The notes under the pieces were generated by a model, which made no database searches, had not been told where the DNA came from, and saw only the letters and a list, made by a program, of their open reading frames with translations. The position numbers and the translations under genes are program-made. This document shows positions 23,511-26,284 of a DNA stretch of 64,000 nt, in pieces. Origin of the DNA: Candidatus Meridianibacter frigidus (GTDB lineage: Bacteria > Vulcanimicrobiota > Vulcanimicrobiia > Vulcanimicrobiales > Vulcanimicrobiaceae); NCBI GenBank assembly GCA_003243975.1, contig QHBJ01000040.1:1-64000 (forward strand), given 5' to 3'. Within the stretch, counting starts at the first letter, position 1. Every line of letters begins with the position of its first letter.

Positions 23511-24065
23511 TCAGCGGAGCTGTGCTGCCGCGTTGGCCATATTCAGTTCGACGGCCGGATTGAAACCGGGCCAGGTGGCGCGCACCAGCCCTTTGCGGTC
23601 CACCACAACCATGGTTGGAAATCCAATCACACCGAACCACGCAGCGGCGAGCGACTTGTTGTCGAGCGCAACGTGATCGATGCCATGTTGACCGGCGTAC
23701 TGCGCTACGAGACCGCGCGGCTCGCCGACGTCAACGGGGATCACGTCAACTTCGGGATGCTTGCGGGCAAATCGCTCGACCATCGGCATCGAAAGCCGGC
23801 ACGGCTCGCACCAGGTGGCCCAGAAATCCAAGAACACGATACGTCCGTGGTGCTTGGCTAAGGTAAACTGCGGGCCGTGCAACGTCGCCAGTTGAATCTG
23901 CGGCGCGGGATGCGCGTCCGCTTCCCGCAGCGAGCGTGGTGCGATGAGAAGCTTCCAGATAACAAACCCAATGACGAGCAGGGCGAGCACATCGAATGCT
24001 CGTCCCCAGCTCAACCAGCGCTTCTTAGTCGGTGGTGAAGACTGCTGCAATTCCCTGTCCGCCAC
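23511..24065 (-). CDS. Membrane-anchored TlpA/ResA-like thioredoxin
   Basis: About 184 residues from GTG 24065 (TTG 24050 is an alternative preceded by AGGGA). An N-terminal anchor (FDVLALLVIGFVIWKLLI) precedes a thioredoxin fold with the redox motif FLDFWATWCEPCRLSMPMVE (CEPC) and the cis-Pro loop VIGFPTMVVVDRKG. It probably reduces periplasmic disulfides, for example in cytochrome c maturation. The start lies inside the end of the thiolase gene on the same strand (41-base overlap), so the two are likely translated together. Confidence 0.88.
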   Translation of the reverse strand: MADRELQQSSPPTKKRWLSWGRAFDVLALLVIGFVIWKLLIAPRSLREADAHPAPQIQLATLHGPQFTLAKHHGRIVFLDFWATWCEPCRLSMPMVERFARKHPEVDVIPVDVGEPRGLVAQYAGQHGIDHVALDNKSLAAAWFGVIGFPTMVVVDRKGLVRATWPGFNPAVELNMANAAAQLR

Positions 24066-25227
24066 CGATGCAAGCCGACGCCACACCGTAACCACCGCGC
24101 TCGCGGCGCAGATCGTGCAGTGCAGTGAGCGCCAGGCGCGCGCCCGAAGCACCCAGTGGATGTCCGAGTGAGATCGCGCCTCCGTGCGGATTCAACCGGA
24201 TCGCGCCGGGCGTGCCCATCTCTTGCAAACACGCGAGAACCTGCGGCGCGAATGCTTCGTTGATTTCCATCACGGCGAGGTCTTTCTGTTCGATTCCCGC
24301 GTCCCGCAGCGCCTTGGGAATTGAGAACGCGGGGCCGATTCCCATAAAATCGGGATCGACGCCCACGACACTCGAACTTACCAAGCGTCCCATCCACTGC
24401 AGTCCATCTGTTTTTGCTTGCTTGACCGTTGTGAGGACGACGGCAGCCGCGCCGTCGGTGATTCCACTCGCGTTGCCGGGCGTGATCACACCCTCTTTGG
24501 TGAAGCGTGCCGGAAGTTTTCCTAATTTCTCTATCGATAATCCCGCGCGCGGCCCTTCGTCACGGTCCACGACGGTCGCGCTGCCCTTAGGCCCCGGAAC
24601 CGAGATCGGCTCGATCTCGTCTGCGTAGTAGCCATCGCTCTGGGAGGCGACCGCCCGTTCCTGCGACTGCAGTGCGAACTCATCGCAGGCCTCGCGCGAG
24701 ATTCCATACTTCTTTGCAAGGTTCTCGGCCGTGATGGCCATCGGCATCTGGTTGTAGGAGTCGGTGAGTGCTTCCCACAGTGAATCCTCGAGCTTACTCT
24801 GGCCAAGCACCAGCCCTTTGCGCGCTCCGCGAATAACGTGCGGTGCCTGACTCATGGATTCAGCTCCCCCGGCGAGTGCGTAGGTGCTTTGCCCGAGCAT
24901 CAATGAGTTAGCTGCTGTAAGAATCGCCTGCAGGCCGCTGCCGCAAAGACGGTTGAGTGTCAACGCCGGCGTGGTGATCGGAATGCCGCAGCGTAATCCC
25001 ACGTGTCGGGCGAGATAGATTGCGTCGGCGCTGGTTTGCATCACGTTGCCGAACACGATGTCGTCGATCGAGTCCGCCGCGACGCCGCTGCGTTTGAGCG
25101 CAGCTTGGCCTGCGTAAACGGCGAGATCCGTGGCGCTCAAGTCCGCGAGTGCGCCGTTAAAGTTACCGAATGGCGTCCGCGCGCCCGCGACGATCACCAC
25201 GTCGTGCTCGGATAAACCGTTGTTCAA
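24025..25227 (-). CDS. Acetyl-CoA acetyltransferase (thiolase)
   Basis: 400 residues, standard thiolase length. It starts VVIVAGARTPFGNFNGALAD. The nucleophilic Cys is in LNRLCGSGLQAILTAANS, the catalytic His in HGGAISLGHPLGASGARL, and the second Cys in ASACIGGGQGIAAVF. The enzyme condenses two acetyl-CoA or cleaves 3-ketoacyl-CoA. With the nearby dehydrogenase and hydratase genes it makes a short-chain acyl-CoA pathway. TTG 25227 is preceded by AAAGGGAG. GGGAG lies 5 bases before the start. Confidence 0.95.
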   Translation of the reverse strand: MNNGLSEHDVVIVAGARTPFGNFNGALADLSATDLAVYAGQAALKRSGVAADSIDDIVFGNVMQTSADAIYLARHVGLRCGIPITTPALTLNRLCGSGLQAILTAANSLMLGQSTYALAGGAESMSQAPHVIRGARKGLVLGQSKLEDSLWEALTDSYNQMPMAITAENLAKKYGISREACDEFALQSQERAVASQSDGYYADEIEPISVPGPKGSATVVDRDEGPRAGLSIEKLGKLPARFTKEGVITPGNASGITDGAAAVVLTTVKQAKTDGLQWMGRLVSSSVVGVDPDFMGIGPAFSIPKALRDAGIEQKDLAVMEINEAFAPQVLACLQEMGTPGAIRLNPHGGAISLGHPLGASGARLALTALHDLRRERGGYGVASACIGGGQGIAAVFTTD

Positions 25228-25286
25228 GGAAGCTCCCTTTGTTGCAAGTTGAAAGTGCCGGGCTTACTTCCGGGGACGGACTCGCC

Positions 25287-25305
25287 TGCCTGCGAGCGGC
25301 AGGCA
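25287..25305. promoter_or_regulatory. Small palindrome upstream of the DUF2249-CRP gene
   Basis: TGCCTG (25287-25292) and CAGGCA (25300-25305) form an inverted repeat with 7 bases between. It lies 32 bases before the regulator's ATG, in the 109-base divergent gap with the thiolase gene. It could be an operator for the CRP-like protein itself or an mRNA hairpin. It does not match the classic CRP/FNR half-site (TGTGA or TTGAT). Confidence 0.3.
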
Positions 25306-25336
25306 ACCACCCGCGCGGGTTCGTATGGAGGGAGCA

Positions 25337-26284
25337 ATGCCTATCTCCCGTCCGGCTGCGCTAACCCTTGATGCCCGGTCGCTTCAGCCTGCGACCCGTA
25401 CTGCCATCATCCTGGAGGCCTTCGATAAACTGTCGATGGGAGCGATTCTGGAGATCAACGAGGAGACCGATCCACGCGCGCTGCGTAACGAGATGGCGCA
25501 AGCGCGCCCCGGCCGTTTCTCGTGGGACGCGCGCAACTTGGGCTCCAACCGGTGGACGGTGCGCCTCGAACGCATCGACGAAAATGCGGCTGGCGAAACG
25601 CTCTTGCAACACGTTCCGCCGTTTGCCTCGGCGAAGGCCTCGACGATCAAAGAACTGGCAGGCCAGATGAGCGAGCGGAGCTACAAGCAGGGCGACACCA
25701 TCTTCGATGAGGGTGAGATCTGGCCGTATCTCGGGATTGTGAAGACCGGCAAAGTCATTCTAACGTTGCTATCGGCGGATGGTAAGACGCACACGCTGGG
25801 CGAGCGGCTTACGCACGATACGCTCAATGACAGCGGCACCTTCGACGGCGGTGGCGCCACAACGCGCGCCGAAGCGCTTACCGACACCACCATCGTGACG
25901 CTTCCCAGCGAAGCCGTGCTGCACGGAAACCGCAACGATTCCGAACTGGCGTTGGGTTTCTTGCAGAACGCTTCCCAAGCGCGCCGCCGCTCGATCGATA
26001 CCATTGCCGATTTGGCTTTCGCGCACGTGTTGCAGCGCGTCGCCAAATTCTTGCTCGGCTACGCGCCGGCTTCTGTCGGAATGGCTAAGGGGCTGCCGGG
26101 TGTCGAGAATCTTTCGCAAGCGCAGATTGCGGCGGCCGCCGGAACCGTGCGCGATATGGCCGCGCGTGCGCTCTTGCGTTTAAAGAATGCGGGCGCCGTC
26201 GAATTGGATCGCGGGCGAGTGCGCGCGATCGACCGCGCGCGACTGGAGGCCTTCGCGGCCAATGTCCAAGCGCCCCCCGTTTAG
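25337..26284 (+). CDS. CRP/FNR-family regulator fused to an N-terminal DUF2249 domain
   Basis: 315 residues from ATG 25337, preceded by GGAGGGAG. Residues about 10-80 match DUF2249: LDARSLQPATRTAIILEAFD, EINEETDPRALRNEM, FSWDARNLGSNRWTVRLERI. A cyclic-nucleotide-binding-like domain follows (about 95-205: YKQGDTIFDEGEIWPYLGIV, KTGKVILTLLSADGKTHTLG). The end is a Crp-type winged helix (SQAQIAAAAGTVRDMAARAL, RLKNAGAVELDRGRVRAID). DUF2249 domains recur in redox and nitrogen-oxide contexts, so a redox or NO sensor is possible. No iron-sulfur cysteines are seen. The target genes are unknown. Confidence 0.82.
   Translation: MPISRPAALTLDARSLQPATRTAIILEAFDKLSMGAILEINEETDPRALRNEMAQARPGRFSWDARNLGSNRWTVRLERIDENAAGETLLQHVPPFASAKASTIKELAGQMSERSYKQGDTIFDEGEIWPYLGIVKTGKVILTLLSADGKTHTLGERLTHDTLNDSGTFDGGGATTRAEALTDTTIVTLPSEAVLHGNRNDSELALGFLQNASQARRRSIDTIADLAFAHVLQRVAKFLLGYAPASVGMAKGLPGVENLSQAQIAAAAGTVRDMAARALLRLKNAGAVELDRGRVRAIDRARLEAFAANVQAPPV

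What the first reader, a model, noticed from the sequence alone, without database searches (positions are those of the whole stretch)
25337..26284. DUF2249 fused to a CRP/FNR regulator
Seen: DUF2249-like residues 10-80, a cyclic-nucleotide-like domain and a Crp-type helix-turn-helix in one chain, with no obvious Fe-S cysteines. Known: DUF2249 is found in redox and nitrogen-oxide-linked proteins. Inference: DUF2249 is the sensory input to the regulator. Adjacent to it are a thiolase set and a small palindrome upstream.
Basis: partly seen in the sequence, partly recalled or inferred. Interest (0 to 1): 0.55.

Follow-up and report, generated by a model that had tools for sequence, protein, structure and literature searches.

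The report
DUF2249-CRP regulator without its histidines
A gene regulator of the CRP/FNR type carries a real extra DUF2249 domain at its front end and is conserved across a little-studied bacterial group, but this copy lacks the two histidines found in its nitric-oxide-linked cousins, so it probably responds to something else.

Summary
In detail: 25337-26284 encodes DUF2249 (53.4 bits, cut-off 29.5), cNMP_binding and HTH_Crp_2 in one 315-aa chain without cysteine. The genome is, by its relatives, an Eremiobacterota MAG. The fusion is old there: orthologues of families f1, f2 and f3 form one supported branch, and f1 proteins are 65-88% identical to the window's. Many genomes also carry paralogues of the fusion.

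The inference (DUF2249 as redox or nitrogen-oxide input) is partly supported. Of 21 sampled paralogues, 13 of 20 readable ones have both histidines of the RH and DHEP motifs, and 15 of 21 lie near oxidase, DUF2249 or FeS-assembly genes; a similar gene set in Shinella sits beside norD and NnrS. The window's protein and all 75 sampled f1 orthologues lack both histidines, and 0 of 77 core loci show such neighbours in the fetched flanks.

The upstream palindrome is not a conserved operator: its right arm, CGGCAGGC, recurs in 34 of 75 upstream regions, mostly as part of a promoter-like element.

Most likely it is a housekeeping CRP-type regulator with a TusA-like N-terminal module retuned to another signal. 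Ligand and targets are untested.

The parts
25337..26284 (+). DUF2249-cNMP-HTH_Crp regulator gene, 315 aa (an in-frame ATG at 25325 would give 319 aa)
   Evidence: Pfam; orthologues align from 25337
25364..25573 (+). DUF2249 domain; the two His positions of cluster-linked DUF2249s are Thr22 and Thr44 here (315-aa numbering)
   Evidence: domain model pLDDT 88.8
25673..25921 (+). cNMP_binding domain with a non-canonical phosphate-binding cassette (LNDSGTFDGGGATTRAEA)
26033..26251 (+). HTH_Crp_2 DNA-binding domain (GTVRDMAARALLRLK)
25284..25305 (.).
25297..25304 (+). CGGCAGGC, right arm of the repeat, found upstream in 34 of 75 regions (window included)
25327..25334 (+). Putative ribosome-binding site GGAGGGAG
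   Evidence: read
24025..25227 (-). Divergent acetyl-CoA acyltransferase (thiolase)
   Evidence: divergent in 48 of 73 relatives
23511..24152 (-). Redoxin/thioredoxin-like protein (gene call: 23511-23990); the divergent neighbour in 16 of 73 relatives

Best explanation
It is the core, probably vertically inherited copy of a DUF2249-CRP fusion. The C-terminal part should work as a CRP-type dimeric DNA-binding regulator. The N-terminal DUF2249, predicted to have a TusA-like fold, is a regulatory module whose ligand or partner binding shifts DNA binding through the beta-roll domain. In family f1 the site was retuned: both histidines of the cluster-linked DUF2249 type were replaced while the rest of the domain stayed conserved, so this copy is probably not a His-based metal, heme or NO sensor. 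It probably acts as a broad housekeeping regulator (one of two CRP-like genes found in the genome), may control its own promoter, and in lineages where thiolase is divergent may act on thiolase. Shown: domain architecture, conservation, lack of the histidines, orthology, neighbours, promoter-like element. Inferred: dimerisation, regulatory role of DUF2249, autoregulation, thiolase control, direction of the change from His to no His.
For: Three Pfam domains above cut-off. In a tree of 69 rows, f1 (35), f2 (3) and f3 (10) form one branch with support 100/99; f1 100/99 and f3 100/100. DUF2249 in f1 is under constraint: mean pairwise identity 0.713 and 23 of 70 columns invariant, against 0.574 and 4 of 33 in the adjacent linker (49 sequences). 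Histidines: H1 0 of 76 and H2 0 of 76 in f1; f3 6 of 8 and 7 of 10; paralogue group 16 of 21 and 17 of 22; cluster-linked small DUF2249 of type c11 7 of 7 and 7 of 7. By my count rows, 48 of 99 f1 genomes have exactly one DUF2249 match, so the fusion persists without a DUF2249 operon. Two CRP-like genes above cut-off in the genome by both profiles. CGGCAGGC in 34 of 75 upstream regions against shuffle mean 0.5, max 3 of 50 shuffles; 29 of 32 intergenic copies in 851 kb of these loci lie just upstream of this gene; 35 of 64 hits of the extended element in 99 genomes lie directly upstream of it (one search places compared by eye).
Against: No DNA-binding or ligand evidence. The AlphaFold model of the whole chain is weak (pLDDT 69.8, residues 216-269 under 50), so dimer helix and HTH placement are untested. 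Another cluster-linked DUF2249 type (sm1) also lacks both histidines, 0 of 17, so lack of His is not proof of a different role. The promoter-like element may be an ordinary promoter type: the same element precedes a different gene in 3 genomes, the reversed control pattern has more hits in the 99 genomes (about 138 by my addition against 64), so only position speaks for it, and the window itself lacks the -10-like part. The upstream neighbour changes between lineages, which weakens thiolase control.
Confidence: 0.5

Rival explanations
1. One reading: DUF2249 is a redox or nitrogen-oxide sensor in this very protein.
For: COG4309 genes occur in NnrR and NsrR nor regulons (passage of PMC1274295) and DUF2249 genes are induced in haloarchaeal denitrification (PMC11218638); DrpA and DrpB of Thermus carry DUF2249 and act in nitrate respiration (PMC6282519). 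Paralogue fusions sit near such genes in 15 of 21 cases. A cluster-linked DUF2249 type without the histidines exists (sm1, 0 of 17).
Against: Both shared histidines absent in 76 of 76 f1 sequences, no cysteine in this protein, no other DUF2249 match in the genome, 0 of 77 core loci with the respiratory families in the fetched flanks.
Confidence: 0.15
2. It is an ordinary cAMP-type CRP (GlxR-like) and DUF2249 is only a structural appendage.
For: Best solved relatives by sequence and by fold are GlxR and M. tuberculosis CRP. The genome has 5 Guanylate_cyc (cyclase) matches above cut-off.
Against: The cAMP-binding cassette is altered: in the phmmer alignment to GlxR, FGELSIFDPGPRTSSA faces LNDSGTFDGGGATTRA. 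N164, T175, T176 and R177 are the same in 49 of 49 aligned sequences, so it is a conserved but different pocket. DUF2249 is itself conserved.
Confidence: 0.15
3. DUF2249 acts as a docking module for a partner protein (as TusA does with IscS) rather than binding a small molecule, so the regulator reports sulfur transfer, FeS assembly or another carrier state.
For: TusA-like fold: Z 8.2 to 9.5 with TusA and the YeeE-YeeD complex. A small DUF2249 next to a paralogue also scores weakly against TusA (23.4 bits, cut-off 28.6), and FeS_assembly_P genes lie beside several paralogues.
Against: Fold similarity is modest (Foldseek best E 3.9e-3, to a methylase; Alba and others follow at Z 7.3 and below); the TusA catalytic cysteine (recalled CPxP motif) is absent; no hit to the FeS_assembly_P query in 77 core loci.
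Confidence: 0.15
4. It is a local regulator of the divergent thiolase and of the butyryl/PHB-type set around it.
For: Thiolase divergent at 47-144 bp in 48 of 73 relatives and in the 3 f2 loci fetched (cluster c29). In the window the Trx-thiolase-regulator block stays together although it is inverted relative to its flanks.
Against: In 25 of 73 relatives the regulator persists with a different upstream neighbour; in 7 of 10 f3 loci the upstream gene is another one (c14), on the same strand as the regulator.
Confidence: 0.2

Closest known systems
GlxR / M. tuberculosis CRP (CRP/FNR family, PDB 4byy, 4cyd, 3d0s)
   Same: cNMP beta-roll and Crp-type HTH, best sequence (E 2e-15) and fold matches
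   Different: extra N-terminal DUF2249; altered phosphate-binding cassette
DNR / NnrR NO-responsive CRP/FNR regulators without Fe-S cysteines
   Same: CRP/FNR fold without FNR cysteines (PMC1274295, passage); DNR among the fold matches (3dkw, 2z69)
   Different: known ones have no DUF2249 (recalled); this copy has no NO-cluster neighbours in the fetched flanks
DrpA/DrpB of Thermus thermophilus (DUF2249 proteins in nitrate respiration)
   Same: DUF2249 domain with a regulatory role (PMC6282519, passages and section 5 read)
   Different: separate small proteins (DrpB: DUF1858 + two DUF2249), not fused to a DNA-binding domain; PMC11218638 (passage) says DrpA has conserved histidines, which this copy lacks if they are the same ones (not checked)
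COG4309/DUF2249 genes of nor operons (NnrR, NsrR regulons)
   Same: DUF2249 family (that COG4309 is DUF2249 is recalled); the paralogues sit in a similar gene set
   Different: stand-alone genes; the window copy is outside any such operon
TusA/SirA family
   Same: predicted beta-alpha-beta-alpha-beta-beta order and best VIA-align rows
   Different: no cysteine; no TusA match listed by Pfam at E up to 1

Membership tests
CRP/FNR regulators | cNMP-type beta-roll domain plus Crp-type HTH in order | tested here: met
   46.1 and 39.6 bits, both above cut-off; fold matches
CRP/FNR regulators | long dimerisation helix between the two domains | tested here: inconclusive
   helices predicted at 202-219 and 223-240, but pLDDT under 50 from 216 to 269
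cAMP-binding CRP subgroup | canonical phosphate-binding cassette (GEL ... R[ST]A, motif recalled) | tested here: not met
   LNDSGTFDGGGATTRAEA, the Arg displaced; binding itself not tested
FNR (4Fe-4S) subgroup | cluster-ligating cysteines | tested here: not met
   0 cysteines; 0 to 3 per sequence in the 49 aligned
DUF2249 (PF10006) | profile match above the curated cut-off | tested here: met
   53.4 bits against 29.5
His-type cluster-linked DUF2249 (type c11) | two shared histidines (RH/KH and DHDP/DHEP) | tested here: not met
   Thr22 and Thr44; 0 of 76 f1 sequences
His-type cluster-linked DUF2249 (type c11) | gene neighbours: oxidase-like, FeS_assembly_P, further DUF2249 | tested here: not met
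   0 of 77 core loci in the fetched flanks, at most 6 kb and often shorter; own genome has one DUF2249 match only
TusA family | TusA fold | tested here: inconclusive
   Z 9.5 to 8.2 for the top four rows; the tool notes that a best Z of 7 to 8 is common without a clear match
TusA family | catalytic cysteine (CPxP, recalled) | tested here: not met
   no cysteine in the protein

The most novel reading that the evidence does not exclude
DUF2249-CRP fusions are an unrecognised class of regulators in Eremiobacterota in which a TusA-fold domain, not the beta-roll heme of DNR, is the sensor. His-bearing paralogues sense NO or a related redox signal through a His pair near the old TusA active site. 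In family f1 an ancestral His-type sensor was turned into a His-less housekeeping sensor for another signal.
Probability: 0.3. Interest if true: 0.6.

Novelty: new variant of a known kind. Interest (0 to 1): 0.4.

Why it matters
DUF2249 has been tied to NO and denitrification without a known molecular role. A natural fusion to a DNA-binding regulator, with His-bearing and His-less versions in sister lineages and often in one genome, gives a direct way to ask whether DUF2249 is a sensor and whether the histidines are its ligand site. It also gives a candidate housekeeping regulator for a bacterial group with few cultivated members.

Tried and rejected
Palindrome as conserved operator: rejected as a whole. 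With up to 2 mismatches it occurs 14 times in the own genome against 20 for the control pattern. Of 75 upstream regions, only the window's and L003's best inverted repeats sit here in the same registers, L003's with one mismatch; several others have different imperfect repeats that overlap CGGCAGGC. One sub-clade has another 22-bp repeat, CGCAGGG-N8-CCCTGCG, close to the start codon: perfect in 6 loci, one mismatch in 2 more. I left it as a clade-specific candidate operator.

General regulon from the CGGCAGGC element: none clear. 29 of 64 genome hits lie elsewhere. I read 8 of these 29 places: 3 precede one gene (888 aa; cut at 485 aa in one contig), 4 lie inside called frames, 1 (own genome) is intergenic without a near start.

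Distribution outside the phylum: only plasmids were searched. There were 155 records matching a paralogue and 31 matching the window protein, none covering 80% of the query. Chromosomes of other phyla were not reached, apart from what the scan of genome contigs with close-relative patterns returned, so the wider distribution is open.

Structure of the whole chain: too poor in the HTH to place DUF2249 relative to DNA. One small DUF2249 query found no solved relative (only an E 0.39 match).

Literature: searches for DUF2249 (2 papers), TusA with DUF2249 (0), COG4309 (1) and PF10006 (6, apparently gene identifiers of Plasmodium, not opened) showed no DUF2249-CRP fusion in what I saw. Papers outside the library are not covered. 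PMC9758169 (first cultivated Eremiobacterota): search listing only.

Full report
What is there. The frame 25325-26284 (+) encodes DUF2249, a cNMP-binding domain and a Crp-type helix-turn-helix in one chain, all above Pfam's cut-offs.

Where it is. The search for related loci returned 77 loci, most titled Candidatus Eremiobacterota or Eremiobacteria; about a dozen are titled only 'bacterium' or the like and two Rhodospirillales, with proteins 72-74% identical. That the window is Eremiobacterota is inferred from these. The own genome is 1.95 Mb and 96% complete. In the phylum set, 139 of 149 genomes have a protein match at E <= 1e-3, but distant ones may be plain CRPs; 120 of 149 have a DUF2249 over cut-off. 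In family f1, 98 of 99 genomes match (the miss, G104, is 56% complete), though in a few, such as G069, only at paralogue level. I treat the named loci as f1 because of their identity (65-88% for the 48 aligned); the tool does not label them so.

Orthologues and paralogues. A tree of 69 fused proteins puts f1 (35 rows), f2 (3) and f3 (10) on one branch, support 100/99, with the 21 sampled paralogues on the other side. The branching f3, then f2, then f1 fits the kinship labels, so the core copy is probably vertical. The root is not known, several paralogue branches are long, and the tool warned of long-branch joins.

The histidines. I aligned 135 DUF2249 domains. Stand-alone DUF2249s of type c11 have both histidines in 7 of 7. 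The paralogue group (22 rows, one of them a DUF2249-hemerythrin protein) has the first His in 16 of the 21 rows with a letter and the second in 17 of 22; of the 21 fused to CRP, 13 of 20 readable ones have both. f3 has 6 of 8 and 7 of 10. f1 has 0 of 76 at both, with T, S, N or A at the first and T, S, G, N or R at the second, while neighbouring D, R, P and L stay nearly fixed. f2 has Asn at the second place (3 of 3) and a His two columns on, where others have Pro; the first is legible in one row only (His). A second small DUF2249 type in the clusters (sm1) lacks both histidines (0 of 17), so lack of His does not by itself exclude a role near NO genes. The f1 domain is not decaying: identity 0.713 and 23 of 70 columns invariant, against linker 0.574 and 4 of 33, though less than cNMP 0.797 and HTH 0.875.

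Neighbourhoods. Of 21 sampled DUF2249-CRP paralogues, 15 have an oxidase, COX1-like, FeS_assembly_P, small or fragmentary DUF2249, or cytochrome b561/molybdopterin gene within 5 kb; 6 do not (my count; gene labels come from Pfam scans of one member per cluster). Four of these 6 lie by a gene that I label seryl-tRNA synthetase by eye (no profile run), and all four lack the first histidine. The sample is biased: many paralogue loci were picked from a capped list ranked by DUF2249 score. The layout DUF2249, 400-450-aa membrane protein, DUF2249, FeS assembly factor also occurs in Shinella, between norD/hemN and an NnrS gene; the two membrane proteins share 27% over 186 columns, E 1e-7 for the single comparison. 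Rodionov et al. already linked COG4309 to NO reductase (passage of PMC1274295). At the core locus none of 77 loci hit the oxidase, FeS-assembly or molybdopterin queries, with flanks of at most 6 kb and often shorter.

Thiolase. It is divergent at 47-144 bp in 48 of 73 loci with at least 500 bp upstream; in 16 the thioredoxin-like gene is divergent instead, in 6 an ECH gene lies upstream on the same strand, and 3 are other. In the 3 f2 loci fetched the thiolase cluster is divergent. In 7 of 10 f3 loci the upstream gene is cluster c14 on the regulator's own strand; the member scanned has no Pfam match. So the regulator is more stable than its neighbour.

Upstream DNA. CGGCAGGC occurs in 34 of 75 upstream regions, window included (shuffles: mean 0.5, max 3 of 50). 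The core GGCAGG occurs in 37 of 75, and in 28 of those 37 an [AC][ACT]TAA follows at exactly 17 bp; 2 more have 16 or 18 and 7 have none, the window among them. This looks like a -35/-10 pair with an odd -35. Among 99 family genomes the pattern CGGCAGGC-N15-17-MMTAA has 64 hits in 46 genomes, 35 of them directly upstream of this gene (one search compared by eye). The reversed control pattern has more hits (about 138 by my addition), so position, not number, is the evidence. Three g12 genomes have the same element before another gene. It may be an autoregulatory site or simply a promoter type.

Structure and pocket. The DUF2249 domain alone models well (pLDDT 88.8) as beta-alpha-beta-alpha-beta-beta. 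Foldseek gives no match at E <= 0.001. VIA-align ranks the YeeE-YeeD complex and TusA first (Z 9.5 to 8.2, 74-76 residues, 2.0-2.6 A), with SirA-like rows at 7.8 and Alba-type DNA-binding proteins from 7.3 down. I take this as a probable TusA-like fold, not proof. The range match to TusA (model 3-80, chain 4-80) would place Thr22 just after the TusA active-site loop; the cysteine position is recalled. The cNMP pocket keeps N164, T175, T176 and R177 in 49 of 49, a conserved but non-canonical set. The genome has five cyclase matches, so cAMP may exist, but canonical binding is not supported.

Mechanism. My best reading is a CRP-type dimer with DUF2249 as an N-terminal regulatory module, of the His type in most f3 and most sampled paralogues and retuned in f1. 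That DUF2249 is an input at all is inferred from fusion and conservation; no experiment was possible. The bold reading, that this is a new class of TusA-fold sensor regulators, is given as the novel case at 0.3.

Noticed in passing
window 23511-26284: The block thioredoxin-like, thiolase, regulator is inverted relative to its flanks: in 44 of 52 relatives with at least 5 kb downstream, DivIVA-like, CoaD and RsmD lie convergent downstream of the regulator, whereas in the window they lie beyond the thiolase.
   Followed up: partly
L220-L222 (G067, G064, G063): The same CGGCAGGC-N16-MMTAA element ends 13 bases before the called start of an 888-aa gene (485 aa in a cut contig; no profile run), so the element may be a promoter type used by more than one gene.
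   Followed up: partly
upstream of the regulator in L050, L051, L053, L057, L061, L062: Perfect 22-bp inverted repeat CGCAGGG-N8-CCCTGCG with a varying spacer, starting 26 to 29 bases before the position aligned to window 25325; a candidate operator in that sub-clade.
   Followed up: no
L148:7768-10944 and similar sets in L139, L142, L147, L149, L151: Recurrent gene set of small DUF2249s, a COX1-like 400-aa membrane protein, FeS_assembly_P and a DUF2249-CRP; the COX1-like protein is only a weak Pfam match (E 0.006) and one small DUF2249 also scores against TusA below cut-off.
   Followed up: partly
L157:8952-9647: DUF2249 fused to hemerythrin, both domains above cut-off, in a more distant genome of the phylum.
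   Followed up: no
L145, L146, L155, L141 (about 1-10 kb): Paralogues of the fusion that lack the first histidine lie near a probable seryl-tRNA synthetase gene (label by eye) in four genomes.
   Followed up: no
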